Source of the DNA: Xestospongia bergquistia
Taxonomy: Eukaryota; Porifera; Demospongiae; Haplosclerida; Petrosiidae
Direction: 5' to 3'
NCBI GenBank assembly: GCA_963965975.1
Contig: OZ014414.1
Coordinates: 1 to 64,000 of the forward strand
Length of the DNA stretch: 64,000 nucleotides
Shown piece by piece: positions 9,571 through 64,000 of the stretch (position 1 is the stretch's first letter; each line of letters starts with the position of its first letter). Position numbers and translations under genes: made by a program. The notes under the pieces were generated by a model that searched no databases, was not told the DNA's origin, and saw nothing but the letters and a program-made list of their open reading frames with translations.

Positions 9571-12500
9571 ATGTATCCGCAATTTGCAGAGAACCCAGCA
9601 ATGAGAGGCTTGCCTGATATGGCAAGATCAAGACTGCCATACCCTCCATATTATACTCCTAAATTGCCAGAAGGGATGCCATATGTTGGAGGACAGAGAC
9701 CCTCACTTCCTTATGGTGGGGGCAAGCCTATTCCACCTCACGACCCAATGTATGGACCATGGAATACGATGATGATGTCACAAGGAATGATGTCAGTGCC
9801 TAAACAAATGAATAAACCTGAATATGGTTTTCCAGGACAGGTAAGTTTCTAATGATAATAATCACATAATAATAATAGATAATATTCTTTTTAATGAAGT
9901 AAATGTTGAAATGTTTTGCTTGTTTAGTTTGCTTACATGCTAGCAGACATCAAGGGAGTTTCCCTCCTTTTGTAATTCCCGCCATCTTTATATGATCTGT
10001 CTATTATTATTATATAGAAATAATAGCAACTGTAAATTTATTAGTATTATATATTCCATATATGGTCATATCAGTAGTACCTGTGGTCATGACAGTACTT
10101 AACTCTACTTAATACTGCCCTCCCTCTCTCTTTCTCAGACTGATATTTATGGCAGACCATATCCTCCTGATCCTATGATGGGAGGTGGTTATCCTACTCA
10201 TGGCTATCCTTCAAGTTATTCACCCTATCAAACATATCCACCCCATCTTGGAATCCCCTCTCATATGGGAGATGGATATACTCCAGAACGACCAAGCTAT
10301 CAACCTCAAAATAATGTATGGAATACTGAAACAGGACCTGTTAATAGTCCTAGTAGAACATGGCCTACTCAACAACAACAACAACAAGTAATTGATGTCA
10401 TTAATACATTGTTATCAAATTTATGTTACTATTATTAGGAAATGATGACATCATCGGAAATGCCACGCCCACCTTCAGCTTTTCAAGGCTCTCCTCAACC
10501 AGCAGCTTTGTCATCTGATTTACAAAAAGGGTCTTCAATGACGAGTTTGAAAGATGCTCTTGTTAATCCACCCTGCACTTTACCAGACTCTAACAAGTAT
10601 CAGTTTAATTCATCTTATTTATCAGTGGGTGGAGATGCACGTGACCACACCTCTCCTCACACACCTAGCAACGCACGTACACCTGACCCTATCACACCTG
10701 GAAGGAGTGGTTTACTTGGAAATAATAATGGAATGTCACCATTATCATCAACTAATAATGATAACAATATAGCATCACGTCCGAGTCAGACTAGTCCATT
10801 TGAAGTTGAAGCTATTTTGGGTATTAAAGAATCAACAGAAAATGGAGAGTCATTTATAAACTCTAAAACAATAAAATCAATATCTCCTACTTCACCTGCT
10901 GGTAGTCCTCATACTAAAAAGGTTATTATGAATGAGTAAAACCCTAAATACTTATCAATGAATTTATTTAGGTGAGAAGTCCAATTTTTTCACCGGTCAA
11001 CAGACACCATCAAGTAGGTTATATTGTATTGTTCTAATTAATGCCCTTCCTTTTTCCAATAGTCATTTTCAAGCCAGTATAACTTGTCTGATGAACCAGG
11101 AAGACGAGATTTCTTAGATGCACTTTTCAAGTACATGGAACAAGAAGGTAGAGCAGCTATTCTGTTGCCATAGCAACCATTATGATATTTATTTAGGTAT
11201 TCCATTTCTAAGACCTCCTACTATGAACAAAAATACACTGGATCTCTTCAAGACATTTACTGCTGTTCAAAGTTTAGGTGGATTTACTCATGTATGTTAC
11301 CTACCTGTTGTCATGACAACATAGTAATTATGTTATTATTATTATAGGTTGTTAATAAACGTTTATGGAAAGATGTTGCAAAGTCTTCTAATAACAGTTC
11401 AAGTAGTACCAGCTCTGTCTTGTTAAAGACATTGTCTGAATATTATGTCAAAGTTTTACTTCCATACGAGTGTCATTTTACTCGTACTAACATACAAGAT
11501 TGTCTCTCGCATTATGAGTTATCACATCGTGTGGGCGGAGATAATGTAGTTCCTAATGATGACAGTGTATCGGACATATTAGCTGATAATTTACAAGATG
11601 ATCGTAAATCAACAACGTCATTAAGTCAAGACTTGACATTACTTGACAACAACAATACCAATCAAGATAATTTGTTAGTATTTTCAGAAGATTCACAAGG
11701 ATCTTTGGAGGGGTTTTCAAACCAACCCTTACCAGATATTAGTGTTCAAGAGGCTGAATCTGTATTAGGAATATCAACCACTAGTGCTGGCCCAACTACA
11801 CCGTCTCCTTCTTATCCTTCATATCATCGAGGTACTCCAGAGTGGCCTGCAAATTCTCCTGATCCATCACGAGACATGATGCCACCTTATCAAGCATCAC
11901 CTCCTACTGGAAACTATCCCCCATACTTTGATTATGGACATTATTCCAGAAGACAATATATGTCACGTGGATATCCTAATATGGAAGACAGCTCTACATA
12001 TTCTTATCCTCCTCATTTACCTAATATGATGGGAAGAGTTGAGGACTATCAATCTTTTAATCATCCAAGTATGAATACTGGTGAGTGGTCATCATGGCCA
12101 CACCCCCAAATGCAGGTCAGACCACGCCTACCTCCTCCATTACCTCCTCATTTGCAGTCAATGATGTTTACACCTCCTAGTCAAAGTCCACACCCACCTC
12201 TACCTTCTTCTCCTGTTCTTCCTCCTCAACATATTGATAACACATCACAAGCATTAGACCCTATTAAAATAATGGTCAATGAACAGGGTTTACCCCCAGA
12301 TAAATCAACTCCACCTCCTCCTCTTCCTTCTAAACCTGTCGTTAATCAAGATATGAAAGTAGCTGATAAAGTAACTGACAAAGCCACACCCCCTTTGGTA
12401 AGCCTTGTATAAGAATTTTGAATTTAGATTATCAACCATTTTGTAGTCGGCTCCTATAAAACAAGAATTACCGGTCATTCCAGTTGAAACAATACAGCCA

Positions 12501-25268: not shown

Positions 25269-27135
25269 ATGGCTACTGGTGCGTTGGTGAGAAACCCAGA
25301 AAGCTCTGGTTCATACAGCTATGCCTCACAACCTCGTGCGATTGGTGGTAGACAAAAATATCGTGAGCCAGATACTAGCAGGTAAATATACATAGAACTA
25401 ACTATCACTTCATCCTTTTAATAAACGGCAGACCTGCAAATATTATGTATGACAAACGTATAGTTCGTGGGAATACATATGCTCTCCATACTTTACCTGC
25501 AGTAAGTTAACAACTGTTTACTATATAACATTTCAATGAATTTAACAGTCTTCACAACCTAATCCGATGGAGCTTCAGAAACAACAAGAATCTCGCAGAA
25601 GAACAGGAGCTTATAGAAGAGCTCGAGCTCAAATGAGAATTCGTTCTCCTCCACCATTAGAGGGTCGTAAACATATAGATGTCCAAACTGAACTTTATCT
25701 TGAAGAAATCACTGACAGAGTGGAAGAAGCTGATGTACAAGTACAAACTGACGCCTTCCTCGATCGTCCTCCAACACCTCTCTTCATTCCAGCTAAGACT
25801 GGTGTAGATGTTGCTACTCAAATTGAAGAAGGCGATGTAATAAATATTATATTAAAAAAGAATGTCTAATTGTCTCTCTCTTACAGTTATTTGATTTTGA
25901 CAGAGAAGTTCGTCCAATATTAGAGGTATTAGTGGGAAAAACAATTGAACAAGCACTGCTAGAAGTTATGGAAGAAGAAGAATTAGCTGCTCTCAGAGAA
26001 CAGCAAAGAATATTTGAAGGAAATAGAAATGCTGAGTTAGTAGAAACACAGAGGTTAGAAGAACAAGAAAGACGTTACAGAGAAGAAAAGGTGTGTAAAC
26101 AAAAGGTTATATTATATCACTTCATTTTATTATAGGAGAGACGTATGCAACAACAGAGAGAAGCATTAATGAAAGAAAAGGAGACGGCAGAAAAAGTAGC
26201 TGCAAGAGCTTTTGCACAGAGTTATTTGTCTGACCTAGTACCTGCTGTATTTTCTAGTTTGAGTCAAAATGGTTTCTTTTATGATCCAATAGAAAGAGGC
26301 TAGTATTTGATATAATGTGTGGAATTTAATATGATCCTTTACAGATATTGAAACTACATTTATACCGTGGTTAATGGAAGAAGCTGAGATCTTACTGGAT
26401 AAAAAGTTATCAGCAAGACTGTTGCTAGATGGTACATTATCACAACTATGATCATGATCATGATAATATAATTTCTATAGTAATAATACGACAAGTTGTC
26501 AAAAAGAAGTTAGGTATTGTTACGCCACCTCCAGCTGAACAACCTACTGACAAACCAGAAAAACCTGATGAAGACCCTATTGAGAAACAAGAAAAACCTG
26601 ATGAAGACCCTATTGGGAAACAAGAAAAACCTGAAGACCCTACTGAGAAACAAGAAAAACCTGATGAAGACCCTACTAACAAACAAGAAAAACCTGATGA
26701 AGACCCTACCGAGAAACCAGAAAAACCTGAAGACCCTATTGAGAAACAAGAAAAACCTGATGAAGACCCTACTGAGAAACCAGAAAAACCTGAAGACCCT
26801 ACTGACCAACAAGAAAAACCTGATGAAGATCCTGCTGAGAAACAAGAAAAACCTGATAAGGACCCTACTGAGAAACAAGAAAAACCTGATGAAGACCCTA
26901 CTGAGAAACCAGAAAAACCTGAAGACCCTACTGACCAACAAGAAAAACCTGATGAAGATCCTGCTGAGAAACAAGAAAAACCTACTGAGAAACTGGTGGA
27001 ACAAGATAATATTGAAAAGTTAGTTGGAGATGAGCAACCATCAGGTAAGTCACTTCATTAAAACTATACAACACTCATTATATTATTATTACAGAGCCCT
27101 CACCTCAAGAAAACCAACAAACAGAAGAAAACTAA
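25269..27135 (+). CDS. RSPH3: Radial spoke head protein 3
   Basis: Exons 25269-25381, 25432-25501, 25549-25836, 25887-26090, 26136-26298, 26345-26431, 26481-27044 and 27095-27135. The start MATGALVRNPESSGSYSYAS leads to NIMYDKRIVRGNTYA. The core is conserved: HIDVQTELYLEEITDRVEE, VQVQTDAFLDRPPTPLFIPA, VDVATQIEEGDLFDFD, VLVGKTIEQALLEVMEEEE, SYLSDLVPAVFSSL and FIPWLMEEAE. RSPH3 dimerises in the axonemal radial spoke stalk and acts as an A-kinase anchor, transmitting signals from the central pair to dynein. The tail after ~residue 320 is a Lys/Glu/Pro/Asp repeat. The intron at 26299-26344 needs a GC donor to keep the family sequence. Confidence 0.95.
26545..26990 (+). repeat. Coding minisatellite in the RSPH3 tail
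   Basis: Units of 42 and 33 bp encode EKQEKPDEDPT and the shorter EKPEKPEDPT alternately, about a dozen in all. Copies are nearly identical at DNA level, implying recent expansion. Long open frames on the other strand and in the +1 frame here are by-products of the repeat. Confidence 0.9.
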
Positions 27136-27185: not shown

Positions 27186-28839
27186 TCACGACTCAGTATC
27201 TGCCTGTAAATGAAGACCATGATCAACTAATGAGGCCACACTCTCAGGAGCAATCTCAACCTCTGATAAACCCGTATCCTAGCAACAAATAATAGAGTAG
27301 TGTACAATACATTACAATATCTTACAGTCTGTGATGTTGAAGACAATTTAAGGAAAACAATTTTTTCCAAGTTGGCCAGTATCTGTTGTAATTGATGTTG
27401 ATTGTAAAGTAAAGGAGAATGAAAATGTATTCCTGCAGGCATTCCATAAACTTGAACTCCTAAAGTCTCCAAGTTATCATAAGGTATTTCAGATCGTCCA
27501 GTAGCAACCTCTATATATTAAAGATGTCATTATGAAGCATTACTGAAGACCTTACTGTATTTTAATGCAAATGCATTTATAACACTTCTTTGCATTGTTT
27601 CTGTACTAAGATTACTAGAACGTAATCCTTTAACAGGTGAGTTCTGTAAGCTAACATTAGCACTTGCTGCTGAAGGTGATGGAGTAGGTACTACAGGTGG
27701 GATCATATCTAAAGAATTACTTGAAATATGAACTTATTAAAACATTACCATTGTTCTCAGAAAAGACATAACCAATGAAAGGATTTTCTAATGGTTTTCC
27801 AATATGCTGTCTTTGCTTATGATAAGCCTTTCCTTTACTTGTTGCTAACAAATGAGTCTGTAGAGCACCAGTATTGACAAGAATAGCAAATCCTTCAAAT
27901 CCTAATTGTTCAAGCAATTCAAACTAAACAATAAGTTAATGTTATAATAAAAGAATCACTGCATGGATTTTTTTATATTAACTACCTTTTCTTGAATTCC
28001 TAACAATGTTTTTTCAACTAAATTTTCATCAGCTGTAACAGATGTAGGAGTTGAAGCTAGTGTTAATAAGGAGGACTCTTGTAATGAAACTTGCTGTTGG
28101 TTATACTCCTAATAATCATCACTAATTAAATGTGTTACTAAAATTAGAACTAACTTGAATTGATGTACTACATACTAGCTCAGCTCGAGCACCCCATTCT
28201 TTACGTTCTTCATCATTTAACTCCGCCCACTGCTGAGCAACTATTGCATTACGTTCTTTAAAATCTAACATTAACATTTAACATCACATGACATCATAAT
28301 GACATCACATAAAATTCAAACCTGGTCCTAGCTCAGGATGATTTTGAACATAATCAGAGAAGAAAACATTATATCCACTAACTCGACGTATCTTTTTAAC
28401 TGGTGGTGTTACAGATGCTTTTAACTCTGGATTACCCTAATCACAATAGATATTACTACCAACCATTGAATAATTCACATACTGATGAAAATTCAAATTT
28501 AGGTAATGGTAATATTCCAGCTTTTCTCTTTCGCTTCACAACTTCTGATCCAATCCAATTCTATAAAGTTTATCAGCATTGTTAATGATGTTATCTTAAT
28601 AATAGGGGCATTACCTTCACTTTAGCGACTGTTGTACCAACTTCAGTTGCACAACGAGCTATAACATCAGTATTACGTCTATGAGTTGATGTCATGCCAT
28701 AATCAATAAAATATTTCATTAATATCGCTCGTTGTTCATCAGAAAATGTCGTGAATTCTTTTTTTTTTAAATATAAATTAAAATTTTACATGTTAGTAAT
28801 CATCTTACTTCCTTTAGAAGAACTTGCCGATTGATCCAT
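27186..28839 (-). CDS. Homeodomain-like / HMG-box / GTF2I-repeat-like protein
   Basis: About ten exons give roughly 390 residues from MDQSASSSKG to LVDHGLHLQADTES. Residues ~12-72 look like a divergent homeodomain: TFSDEQRAILMKYFIDYGM, then VIARCATEVG and VKNWIGSEVVKRKRK, with the helix-3 W and basic tail. Residues ~100-152 resemble an HMG box: VSGYNVFFSDYVQNHPELGP, then IVAQQWAELNDEERKEWGAR. A middle region (LLEQLGFEGFAILVNTGALQ) is unknown. Residues ~290-362 resemble a GTF2I (I-repeat) domain: QRSVINAFALKY, EIPYDNLETL, VQVYGMPAGIHFHSP and LQQILANLEKIVFLKL. A nuclear DNA-binding factor is the likely role. Family assignments are from memory of consensus patterns. The start codon is 179 bp from the divergent gene at 29019. 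Confidence 0.7.
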
Positions 28840-28944: not shown

Positions 28945-29018
28945 ATGAATTAAAGAATTGCCACGCCTAATAATTAGCCACTATTTTTAGGGTGGGGCTG
29001 TTGAGCTCTGCAGATAAA

Positions 29019-29936
29019 ATGACTTTGTTTTTAGAACCTTCATATCCTTCAACAAGAGGCTACTACACACTAAGAGAACTACAACTATTATCCAGTGTAC
29101 TGGGCTATGATAGTAAGTTATTTCAGAGAGGATTAAAGGACCATGGAATAAACATCACTGACAAAGATAGATATACTGAAGCTGAAATCCATTGTTGGTT
29201 GGATAGCAAATTGTTACACAAGGAATTAGACCATATTTTTAATCGATATACAGCAGATTATAATGTTATCGTGATAAAGAGAGCACTCCATCATCTACAT
29301 CAACACTCATTGACTTATAGTGATTTGGGAAAATCACGTAGAGCCTTTGAATCACAAACTTATGATCAATTTGGAATGCCTGCTAATATAGATGTCATCC
29401 TTTATACATTAAAGATAATAAATAAAGTCCTACCTCCATTAAAATTAGAACATCTGCTCAAAGTTATGTCCAAACAATTTGATACACCTCAGAAACTAAA
29501 AATCTATAATTTCCTGGACATTGTGGCACAATCGACTCCTATAGGACAGTTACCATTACTTTGTATTGAAGGTAACGACGATATCAATTTAGATGAATTA
29601 TTTGAAACACCATATCACAAGTTGCTATCAACTCTGAATACTGAGTATAAAACATCAATCACAAAACATAAAGTTAGACAGCAAGAGACACCATTTAAAC
29701 AAGCAACTAAATCTTTCATAGATACATCAAAACGAAAGACAGCAGTCCTTACATCTAAACAAACTGGACAATCGCTTACATCTTATATAAAATCTAGCGC
29801 TAGCTCTATTCAGTTAGCTCGTACAGGACAGAGACCACTATCAGTAGAACAAGGATTAAGAGTATTAACTCGTCTATCAGTAAGAGAGAGTGACTGTAGA
29901 TTAACGCCATTTTACATTAATTCAAGTGAATATTGA
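29019..29936 (+). CDS. Intronless gene, unknown helical protein of 305 residues
   Basis: The first ATG is MTLFLEPSYPSTRGYYTLRE. The sequence is mostly helical with the pattern of paired-helix (EF-hand-like) units: LRELQLLSSVLGYDSKLFQR, YTEAEIHCWLDSKLLHKELD and LYTLKIINKVLPPLKLEHLL. I see no canonical DxDxDG calcium loop. The last 80 residues are Lys/Ser/Thr-rich and look disordered. No signal peptide or membrane segment is seen. I do not recognise the family. It sits between RSPH3 and PACRG, so a ciliary role is possible by neighbourhood only. Its poly-A signals (AATAAA at about 29944 and 29960) lie beside the PACRG stop codon on the other strand. Confidence 0.75.
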   Translation: MTLFLEPSYPSTRGYYTLRELQLLSSVLGYDSKLFQRGLKDHGINITDKDRYTEAEIHCWLDSKLLHKELDHIFNRYTADYNVIVIKRALHHLHQHSLTYSDLGKSRRAFESQTYDQFGMPANIDVILYTLKIINKVLPPLKLEHLLKVMSKQFDTPQKLKIYNFLDIVAQSTPIGQLPLLCIEGNDDINLDELFETPYHKLLSTLNTEYKTSITKHKVRQQETPFKQATKSFIDTSKRKTAVLTSKQTGQSLTSYIKSSASSIQLARTGQRPLSVEQGLRVLTRLSVRESDCRLTPFYINSSEY

Positions 29937-60652: not shown

Positions 60653-63600
60653 ATGGCTACAGAATTTCACACTTGTTTGGTGAGCGTCGTTGGTTATTCA
60701 GCTCATGGAGCTACATATCATACTAGTACTGCAGGAATAGGAAAGTCGTGTCTCTGTAGTCGGTTGCGTTACAGTGGAGTCGATGACTACGTTGCAGATC
60801 ACCCATCCTTGTTAGCTCTGCACGAATTTGAAAGTCAAGTTGTAAGCACGGAACCCTTTCTTTATTGGGGACCACATCAAGTGACATATCCTGGAATTAA
60901 AGGCAAGGATATAGTAGTGACATATGAAGTAGTTGAGCACACTCTGTTTTATCACGATGAAACCTCTCAACCCTTTTCACCTTTAAAGAAGCTATTAAAT
61001 CATCGTGACTATGCTAAAAGAGCTCTTGTATCTCCTGATTCTTCACGTAAGATAAGTTATTATGCCCGAGATGCTATTGGTTTTCCAGATAAATATACTT
61101 GCCTGCCTTATCCATCCAATGTTAACAGGTTACCTCGAGGATTTATTATAGCAGTAGATATTTCAATGGAAGGTATGGAGTTTGAACGTCAGTTAACAGC
61201 AGTAGAAACAATTGCTTATGAAATGAAAAAGCAGACAGTAGTTATTGCAGCTACTAAAAGAGACTGTTACAATGAGCTTTCATTACGTAGACTTACTGAA
61301 TGGGCTACTAAACAGAAATTACCTATTATTGAGACTTCAGCTAAAGATAATGTTAACGTACAAGATGCTTTCCGTCTTGTTGCATCACGAGTTCTCAAGA
61401 AAGCCAAAATACCTGACACATGTATGGATTATGCTTCTGCCACAGGTTACCAGTTGACTTTGAGGTCAAAAGCTAAAAAAGAATTCAAGGAATATTTGTC
61501 AAAACGTATTCGTTCATCTACTGTTAGTTTAGAGACGATTGAAAAAATACCAGAATATAAAAAAGTCCTTGAAATGACGGGAAAATTTACCACAGATGAG
61601 ATTTTGGCACAACACCTGTTAGAAGTACGAAACACCGAAATAAGTAGCTATCCCGGAGTAGAAGACAACCCCGATATGAGAATTGAGATGCTTGAGGAGT
61701 TTATTGATAGTCTAATAGACTTTGTAGCACACCAGAAGACGTTATACATGTAAGTTGATTTACACATATTTTCTTATTAACACTAACATGCCTTAATTAC
61801 TATTTGTTGGTTTAACTACAATGATTGAACGTAGATATGACCTCTGTCAGGAATATAGTTGCATTATAAACATGTGTTGTTGACAAGTCAAAGCCCCTTC
61901 TAATTAATAGCATAATGTAAACAGATCTTTTTCCTAAATATGATTGTTGTTTGTCTTGTTAGTCTCTATAGCAAACATTGTCATCACCACTTGCCAAAAC
62001 ATTGATAATAGTTTGTATCTTTTCATATTTACATACTGAGAATAACACGAGATGTTGATATATGATATCACTAAGAGTGGTGTATTACTTTAGAAAGATC
62101 AACAACTATCACGTTAGTAGATTAAACTTTAAAAAAGTATCAACCAAATTTTAATACATTTAAATTTAAAAAACAAACTGTTTACCAAGCAGCTATGAAT
62201 GCCAGCTTATCACAACACCGGAATATTGAGGAATTACCCAATCATTGAGTCCTAGGAAATGTTTCTATTTCTTGTAGTAACCTTATTGTAGTTGTATATG
62301 TATTGCTTGTGTAGGAGGACATCATGTCTATAGCATATGAAAACATCAGCTTTTTTGTTAATCGTTAAATGTTGTTCTTGCTAATAATATCAGATATCGT
62401 AGAGTAGTACTCACAACTAAATTTAATCAATTTACTACAGTTTCCATAGCCTCACAATTATATACCATATATGGTCATAATTAAGGCTCTAACCTCTCCT
62501 TCACATCCTTTGTAAAATTTCAACCCAGCCTCTTTTTCCTTGTTGTACTTCTTCCTCTTTAAAGTTCATGTGTCATAGCTCTTTCCTTTTTATAATTTTA
62601 CAGGATAATGACTTCCTTTGTTACTGAAGAAGCTGTGTATTACAATGAAACCTTTCCTTCTTCTATATCAACTACATTTCATCCAGATACAACTTCTACA
62701 GAATTAGAGGCCAAGGAGACACCTCTATTAAATGAATATGAACAACCCACTTCTCCTATGAAGAATTATGTTAAACTTGAACGAACGGATAATGATATCA
62801 GTTCATCGTCATGCATTGAACAAGAAGAGATTCAACAAGTTGAAGTAGATATGATTAAGAATACAGAGGAAGAGAAGGAAAAAAGCAGTACTGTTCCTAC
62901 AAACCAACCGTTGAAACAAGCATCAGAAATTGAAGAAATTTATGATAATCAGGAGCCAATGATTCCTCATGTGGCCTCTTTAATTCCTCCTTCAGAAGAT
63001 ATTGATCATTTAACAACAATGTCAATGAAAGAACGTGCAAAACTTCTAAAAAAGCAAATTTCAGGAGAAAAGGTGACCATTGAAGAGTTTGTTAAAAATG
63101 AACTACCAAAAACACTGGCAACGGAAGGTGAAGGTGTAGTACCTACGTCCAAATCAGCCTCCAATAAAAAACACATTCACACACCACCCCCTTGTGTGCG
63201 TGCTTCAACTAAAATCCCTCCTCCATTAATTTCTCCTAAACAAAAGAAAAGAGATTATTCTGATACCAAACTACAAGAACATAAGCAAAATAAATCAATT
63301 GAAATATCTTCACCTTTACCTGTGATACTTTCACCTGAAATTCCTCCACCTGGAACACCTGAAACAGAGTCCCTTCCAAAAGGGACTCCCCCTATAAAAC
63401 CTAAACCGACTATTCCAAAGAAACCGGTAAAGTCTTCAGTTCCATTAATGACAAATCCTAATCCTATGACACCTGGAACACCACCATTGAAGGAGAAACT
63501 CCTTCCTTTACAGTCTATACCCCCTCTAAAACCACCTACTCCTGTGACATCCCCTCTAAAACCATCAACCGCTGGGACTCCCCCTTTAAAGCCAGCTTCT

Positions 63601-64000
63601 CCTAGGACACCATTATTTACTCCTGAGATGCCTCTAAAATCTCCATCAATCCTAGAAACAAAGCCTGATCAATTTTCAGCAAAACAGCCCTCACAATCAT
63701 CACCCAATCAAAAATTCAATCGAAAAAGCTATGAACGAGCTCCTCTTCCCCCACAACCAAAACAAGAAAGTTCAGTTATTGCTTCAGAAGCACACAAAGT
63801 TAGATCTAACTATGAGCCAAGGTTGCCGAAACTACGTGAGAAAGTCATGCAACAACAAAAACAACTTAAAAACTCTGATAATGACACTTCTACAACAACT
63901 ATTACATTATCCTCAGATCATTCCCATCCTCCATTGAATTCTACTCTCTCTCCTCCCCTTCCACCATTGCACTCTGCTCCCTCTCCTTCTCCATCTCACC
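60653..64000 (+). CDS. p190RhoGAP-like protein (ARHGAP5/35), 5' part
   Basis: Exon 1 (60653-61749) starts MATEFHTCLVSVVGYSAHGA. It contains the N-terminal GTPase-like domain with TAGIGKSCLCSRLRYSG (P-loop; p190 proteins share GIGKSCLCxR), TEPFLYWG, VVIAATKRD and IIETSAKDNVNV. One FF-like domain follows (about residues 275-335; KEFKEYLSKRIRSS, KKVLEMTGKFTTDEI). Exon 2 starts at 62604 (MTSFVTEEAVYYNETFP) and continues past the window end as an acidic then Pro-rich region with many PLKP/TPP repeats (63340-63620). The RhoGAP domain expected at the C-terminus lies outside. p190 proteins turn off Rho at the membrane. The remaining FF repeats and pseudo-GTPase domains of vertebrate p190 are not seen where expected. 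Confidence 0.82.
61750..62603 (+). other. Long (854-bp) first intron of the p190RhoGAP-like gene
   Basis: It is bounded by GTAAGT and TTTTACAG and is about 15 times longer than usual introns here. It is AT-rich, with no ORF, array or family match that I can see. A regulatory role is possible from length alone. Confidence 0.6.

What the first reader, a model, noticed from the sequence alone, without database searches (positions are those of the whole stretch)
27186..28839. One protein with homeodomain-like, HMG-box-like and GTF2I-repeat-like regions
The exons join in one frame from an N-terminal homeodomain-like segment (VKNWIGSEVVKRKRK) through an HMG-like segment (IVAQQWAELNDEERKEWGAR) to a C-terminal segment with the GTF2I-repeat pattern (RSVINAF..KY, PYDNL, VYGMPAGIHFHSP, LQQIL). 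GTF2I repeats are best known from vertebrate TFII-I proteins. A copy next to two other DNA-binding folds in an early animal would bear on where the I-repeat came from.
Basis: partly seen in the sequence, partly recalled or inferred. Interest (0 to 1): 0.72.

Follow-up and report, generated by a model that had tools for sequence, protein, structure and literature searches.

The report
Homeodomain, HMG and TFII-I-repeat protein
A small gene in an early-branching animal, probably a sponge, appears to encode one protein that joins three domains of DNA-binding types, one of them the repeat known mainly from the human transcription factor TFII-I, which would mean that this repeat is older than vertebrates.

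Summary
The finding holds. Ten minus-strand exons (28839 to 27186) join into one 394-residue frame with nine short GT-AG introns; codon usage favours that frame in the nine exons scored. The C-terminal segment passes Pfam's curated cut-off for the GTF2I repeat (32 bits against 27, E 1.6e-7). Homeodomain and HMG box are divergent and below Pfam's cut-offs. The homeodomain has Ser at position 51 and Val at 53 instead of the usual Asn and Arg. Its phase-0 intron after codon 46 occurs in many homeobox exons of this genome. One GTF2I match was found in the 146-Mb genome. The genome has Wnt genes, so an animal; sponge is inference. The segment before the repeat weakly resembles the start of TFII-I, suggestive only. 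Most likely it is a single-repeat, TFII-I-like nuclear regulator in an unusual domain combination. DNA binding, transcripts and relatives in other animals could not be tested.

The parts
27186..28839 (-). whole coding region, 10 exons, 394 aa (398 aa with the alternative donor in intron 8)
28809..28839 (-). exon 1, start codon at 28839
28615..28757 (-). exon 2: homeodomain up to codon 46, ending in a phase-0 intron
28483..28560 (-). exon 3: rest of the recognition helix (W48 I49 G50 S51 E52 V53; numbering recalled) and basic tail
28322..28436 (-). exon 4: basic stretch and first part of HMG box
28176..28264 (-). exon 5: second part of HMG box (QQWAELNDEERKEW)
27986..28108 (-). exon 6: linker before the TFII-I N-terminus-like segment
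27749..27923 (-). exon 7: segment weakly resembling the region before repeat 1 of TFII-I
   Evidence: suggestive; human letters recalled; no Pfam hit, no PDB hit
27556..27708 (-). exon 8: Pro/Ser-rich linker and first part of the GTF2I repeat
27326..27510 (-). exon 9: core of the GTF2I repeat (Pfam positions 24-71)
   Evidence: (29.5 bits, over cut-off)
27186..27278 (-). exon 10: C-terminus and stop

Best explanation
One gene, present as a single GTF2I-repeat locus in its genome, for a nuclear regulator that works like a TFII-I protein. It has a divergent homeodomain, an HMG box and one C-terminal GTF2I repeat, possibly preceded by a counterpart of the TFII-I N-terminal segment. The HMG box most likely supplies shape-dependent, weakly sequence-specific DNA binding. 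The homeodomain, lacking Asn51 and Arg53, more likely serves as an auxiliary DNA-backbone or protein contact. The single repeat acts as a protein-interaction or weak DNA-contact module. Shown: gene anatomy at sequence level and the GTF2I repeat. Well supported by sequence: homeodomain and HMG identity. Inferred: one transcript, nuclear location, binding modes, regulation of transcription.
For: GTF2I profile over the curated cut-off. 19 of 19 PDB matches at E<=1 fall into the three expected folds on the expected segments. 9 of 10 PDB matches to the repeat segment at E<=1 are TFII-I family repeats, best 2dn4 at E 3.8e-4, with the alternative donor. 17 of 18 homeodomain-segment hits are homeodomains. 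14 of 14 HMG-segment hits are HMG-box proteins (that TFAM is one is recalled). The homeobox intron after codon 46 in phase 0 is shared with 19 of 20 fetched homeobox exons of this genome, which were chosen because their match stops there (24 of 47 matches do). Codon usage favours the joined frame. Neighbouring genes lie close on both sides.
Against: Homeodomain and HMG box are each below their Pfam cut-offs and the locus is in neither genome-wide list at E<=0.001. The homeodomain lacks Asn51. The basic residues of TFII-I repeat 2dn4 (FRRP, PRLERIL) are replaced here (FHSP, HQLQQIL), so DNA binding by this repeat is doubtful. No RNA evidence. The structure model is too poor to use. No relative was found in the collections on hand, which hold few or no eukaryotes.
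Confidence: 0.75

Rival explanations
1. The GTF2I resemblance is convergent or chance in a short region, and the protein is simply a homeodomain/HMG protein.
For: Single repeat only; matches to the solved TFII-I repeats are modest (best E 3.8e-4); structure prediction uninformative.
Against: Pfam E 1.6e-7 for the whole protein and 6.3e-9 for the segment, over the curated cut-off. Exon 9 is the only match reported in 146 Mb even at E<=10. 9 of 10 PDB matches to the segment at E<=1 are TFII-I family repeats.
Confidence: 0.04
2. Two neighbouring genes or alternative transcripts: a homeodomain-HMG gene (exons 1-5) and a TFII-I-like gene (exons 6-10).
For: No transcript data. The two halves have different domain kinds. 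A Met in exon 8 (residue 253) could start a product holding the repeat alone, and intron 4 holds in-frame Met codons before exon 5.
Against: The intron between exons 5 and 6 is 67 nt with GT-AG signals and keeps the frame. There is no Met between residues 33 and 252, so exons 6-7 have no start of their own in the joined frame. The flanking genes close the interval: the radial spoke gene ends about 50 nt from this gene's stop and the next open frame starts about 180 nt beyond its start codon.
Confidence: 0.06
3. A stronger form of the best explanation, not exclusive of it: the protein keeps the ancestral form of the TFII-I family, exon 7 being homologous to the TFII-I N-terminus and the repeat to a TFII-I repeat, with the homeodomain and HMG box lost, or never present, in the vertebrate line.
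For: The segment aligns with recalled human GTF2I and GTF2IRD1 N-termini at z 2.6 and 2.5; of 16 windows along the protein the best start at 181 and 201 (GTF2I) and 161 (GTF2IRD1), just before the repeat. That TFII-I has the same order is recalled.
Against: Weak statistics: 38 and 61 of 2000 shuffles reach the pairwise scores. With a three-sequence profile, 36 of 5000 shuffles score at least as high as the segment and 23 of 5000 as exon 7; of 295 ORF decoys 3 and 2 do, one of them the exon's own frame, leaving 2 and 1 of 294. The whole protein is reached by 375 of 5000 shuffles and 53 of 295 ORFs. Human letters were recalled, not fetched. No Pfam or PDB hit.
Confidence: 0.45
4. Contaminant or recent horizontal transfer from a vertebrate.
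For: GTF2I repeats are best known from vertebrates (recalled).
Against: The gene lies on a contig of at least 8.39 Mb (C4) among ordinary animal genes, shares the genome's common homeobox intron position, and is far from the solved human repeats (best E 3.8e-4).
Confidence: 0.01

Closest known systems
TFII-I family (GTF2I, GTF2IRD1, GTF2IRD2)
   Same: GTF2I repeat over the Pfam cut-off; possible N-terminal segment
   Different: One repeat instead of several; has a homeodomain and an HMG box, which TFII-I proteins lack (recalled); basic residues of repeat 2dn4 not kept
HDX, highly divergent homeobox (PDB 2da4; that 2da4 is HDX is recalled)
   Same: Best single-domain match of the homeodomain segment (whole-sequence E 3.9e-4), sharing the WIG motif; HDX is described as a highly divergent atypical 68-residue homeodomain (PMC2211742, passages)
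   Different: The HDX chain reads WIGNRRRK, keeping Asn51 and Arg53, absent here; HMG box and GTF2I repeat are not known to me in HDX (recalled)
HMG-box proteins (TFAM, HBP1, TOX, NHP1, SMARCE1)
   Same: 14 of 14 PDB matches to the segment at E<=1
   Different: Below the Pfam cut-off; combined with a homeodomain and a GTF2I repeat

Membership tests
TFII-I family | GTF2I (I-) repeat over the curated Pfam cut-off | tested here: met
   32 bits against 27, E 1.6e-7
TFII-I family | Several I-repeats in one protein | tested here: not met
   One matched stretch in the protein and one match reported in the genome at E<=10 (six-frame, exon by exon, best candidates only)
TFII-I family | TFII-I-type N-terminal segment before repeat 1 (recalled feature) | tested here: inconclusive
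   z 2.6 and 2.5 with recalled letters; 36 and 23 of 5000 shuffles at least as good
TFII-I family | Repeat fold confirmed by structure | tested here: inconclusive
   AlphaFold2 on a single sequence with intron 8 read through gave mean pLDDT 45.7
Homeodomain | Homeodomain profile over the curated Pfam cut-off | tested here: not met
   12.7 bits against 22.9, E 0.12
Homeodomain | Sequence similarity to solved homeodomains | tested here: met
   17 of 18 PDB hits at E<=1; 6m3d 3.1e-5 summed over two domains of a fusion, 2da4 3.9e-4
Homeodomain | Asn51 (and Arg53) of the recognition helix (rule recalled) | tested here: not met
   Ser51 and Val53 in the sequence aligned
HMG box | HMG_box profile over the curated cut-off | tested here: not met
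   20.4 bits against 25.4, E 7.1e-4; 14 of 14 PDB hits are HMG-box proteins
Homeodomain, HMG box, TFII-I repeat | DNA binding | not testable with these tools
   Needs a binding assay

The most novel reading that the evidence does not exclude
The TFII-I repeat, with the TFII-I N-terminal segment, existed before the split of sponges from other animals as one module of a homeodomain-HMG-I-repeat regulator. Vertebrate TFII-I proteins would descend from this module after loss of the two other domains and multiplication of the repeat.
Probability: 0.3. Interest if true: 0.75.

Novelty: new variant of a known kind. Interest (0 to 1): 0.52.

Why it matters
GTF2I and GTF2IRD1 are prime candidates for features of Williams-Beuren syndrome (abstracts in the listing), and I know of no settled origin for their repeat. 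A single-repeat protein in an early-branching animal gives a starting point for dating the repeat and for asking what it did before it was multiplied. The domain combination itself is unusual (recalled). In the searched library no paper holds both 'GTF2I' and 'Amphimedon', and none holds 'GTF2IRD1', 'TFII-I' and 'invertebrate' together. The library lacks most subscription journals, and no protein database of eukaryotes could be searched, so such proteins may already sit in databases unremarked.

Tried and rejected
Relatives: one scan each of viral contigs and genome contigs with the 398-aa form found none (18 and 38 pattern stretches, none confirmed); expected, as these collections are viral and prokaryotic. 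Paralogues of the homeodomain segment and of the exon 6-7 segment in the own genome: only the locus itself at E<=1; the HMG and repeat segments were not searched as proteins, only as Pfam families.

Structure: a single-sequence AlphaFold2 run on exons 8-9 read through intron 8 gave mean pLDDT 45.7; no fold search was made with it, because matches of such a model mean nothing.

Species: a search for a sponge assembly of 146.46 or 146.5 Mb gave no paper with that size (14 of 16 listed). Crambe crambe (143.20 Mb, 124 scaffolds; passages) and Diacarnus erythraeanus (140.86 Mb, 145 scaffolds; passages) do not fit. Amphimedon queenslandica is possible (recalled: three Wnt genes, an NK homeobox cluster, short introns) but not shown.

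NCBIfam gave no family. TFII-I papers: none of the titles listed (20 of 374; 3 of 3; 37 of 37) concerns invertebrate GTF2I repeats; searches returned 0 papers. PMC12428995 and PMC10641963 were read in passages only and add nothing on the repeat outside vertebrates.

Full report
What was checked. The finding names a minus-strand protein at 27186-28839. Reading the strand and joining the exons gives 10 exons with 9 introns of 51, 54, 46, 57, 67, 62, 40, 45 and 47 nt, all GT-AG, and one frame of 394 residues that begins at the stated 28839 and ends at the stated 27186. A codon-usage score trained on seven long ORFs of the window outside 27-29 kb is positive in the joined frame for the nine exons scored (4.1 to 21.5 bits). 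In eight of the nine both other sense frames contain stops; the short first exon has one other open frame at -1.7. The tenth exon was not scored because it holds the terminal stop. Antisense frames are open in exons 1, 3, 8 and 10 (-5.8, 3.6, 6.8, 6.1), below the sense score in the three where both were scored.

Domains. Pfam finds the GTF2I repeat at residues 291-355 with 32 bits (cut-off 27, E 1.6e-7), and 36.5 bits for the segment alone. In the six-frame genome search exon 9 alone scores 29.5 bits and is the only match in 146,460,797 bases, also at E<=10. That search works exon by exon and scores only the best candidates, so a repeat split over small exons could be missed. A second donor in intron 8 lengthens the protein by four residues, raises the profile score to 37.2 bits and gives the best solved match, TFII-I chain 2dn4, at E 3.8e-4. 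It would leave a 33-nt intron, shorter than the other eight (40-67 nt), so the choice is open.

Searched apart, the homeodomain segment gives 18 hits at E<=1, 17 of them homeodomains, the HMG segment 14 of 14 HMG-box proteins, and the repeat segment 9 of 10 TFII-I family repeats. Against this, the Pfam scores of the homeodomain (12.7 bits, E 0.12, behind a picornavirus 2A model at 0.05) and HMG box (20.4 bits, E 7.1e-4) stay below the curated cut-offs, and the locus appears neither among the 18 HMG-box matches nor among the 47 homeodomain matches of the genome at E<=0.001. Both domains are split by introns here, which that search does not bridge.

Details of the homeodomain. Aligned with homeodomains, the recognition helix reads W48-I49-G50-S51-E52-V53 (numbering recalled). 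The Asn51 and Arg53 of nearly all homeodomains (recalled) are missing, so ordinary DNA reading is unlikely. The closest single domain is 2da4, which I recall as human HDX; it shares WIG but keeps Asn51. Papers describe HDX as a divergent 68-residue homeodomain placed near the POU class (PMC2211742, passages), with weak support for a link to three ctenophore homeodomains (PMC2959044, passages). The exon ends in phase 0 after codon 46. In the Pfam homeodomain search 24 of 47 genome matches stop at profile position 46; I fetched 20 of the 24, and 19 of 20 have GT directly after codon 46. These were chosen because they stop there, and several are near copies of each other, so the count shows only that this intron site is common in the genome. 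It supports descent from a real homeobox.

The segment before the repeat. Exons 6-7 have no Pfam or PDB match. From memory they looked like the start of TFII-I. With human letters recalled, pairwise alignment gives z 2.6 (38 of 2000 shuffles as good) for GTF2I and z 2.5 (61 of 2000) for GTF2IRD1; of 16 windows along the protein the best ones lie in this region for both. With a three-sequence profile, 36 of 5000 shuffles score at least as high as the segment and 23 of 5000 as exon 7; among 295 ORF decoys 3 and 2 do, and one of these is the exon's own frame, leaving 2 and 1 of 294. The whole protein is reached by 375 of 5000 shuffles and 53 of 295 ORFs. This is suggestive, not shown.

Organism and surroundings. 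The genome holds three loci with Wnt matches (9 matching stretches) and 47 homeodomain matches, seven of them within 146-186 kb of contig C13, as expected of an animal with a homeobox cluster. That it is a sponge is inference from short introns, close genes and these counts, helped by recall. The neighbours include an open frame with RING and USP8_interact matches, a radial spoke protein 3 exon and Parkin co-regulated protein exons; further away lie POT1 and BAF250 matches. The radial spoke gene, by my reading of its last exons, ends on the other strand about 50 nt from this gene's stop, and an uncharacterised open frame begins on the other strand about 180 nt beyond its start codon. There is little room for two transcription units. 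There is no Met between residues 33 and 252, so a separate downstream protein would have to start at residue 253 or in an intron.

How it may work. I-repeats are described as helix-loop-helix modules that can bind DNA independently, with an RGATTR core for repeats 4 and 6 of TFII-I and 4 and 5 of BEN (PMC3438194, passages). The basic residues of the TFII-I repeat in 2dn4 are replaced here, so I favour a protein-contact or weak DNA-contact role for this repeat, DNA bending by the HMG box and an auxiliary role for the homeodomain. All of this is inference.

Verdict. A real gene by its sequence, with an unusual domain combination and a well-supported GTF2I repeat in what is probably a sponge. It is TFII-I-like but does not meet the family's multi-repeat feature, so I do not file it as a TFII-I. 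Whether it is the ancestral form is open.

Noticed in passing
window 26530-27020 (+): The exon that appears to follow the radial spoke protein 3 exons has a long run of DPTEKQEKPDE-like repeats.
   Followed up: partly
window 28974-29936 (+): A 320-codon stop-to-stop frame, apparently a single-exon gene, divergent to this gene with a short shared upstream region; no Pfam match at E<=0.001.
   Followed up: partly
genome contigs C8 (2.06-2.34 Mb, 3.73-3.87 Mb) and C10 (3.48 Mb): Similar homeobox exons with the same exon end: 9 of the 20 fetched (L020-L026, L028, L029) read NVHV or NIHV and then GTAAGTCTA; some further C8 matches have stops. An expansion of a homeobox gene or a mobile element carrying one.
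   Followed up: partly
genome contig C13 146-186 kb: A tight cluster of seven homeodomain matches, perhaps the NK cluster.
   Followed up: no
window 62596-63999 and 11348-12409 (+): Two long open frames without Pfam matches at E<=0.001; the second lies just before the frame with the BAF250 C-terminal match and may be part of that gene.
   Followed up: no
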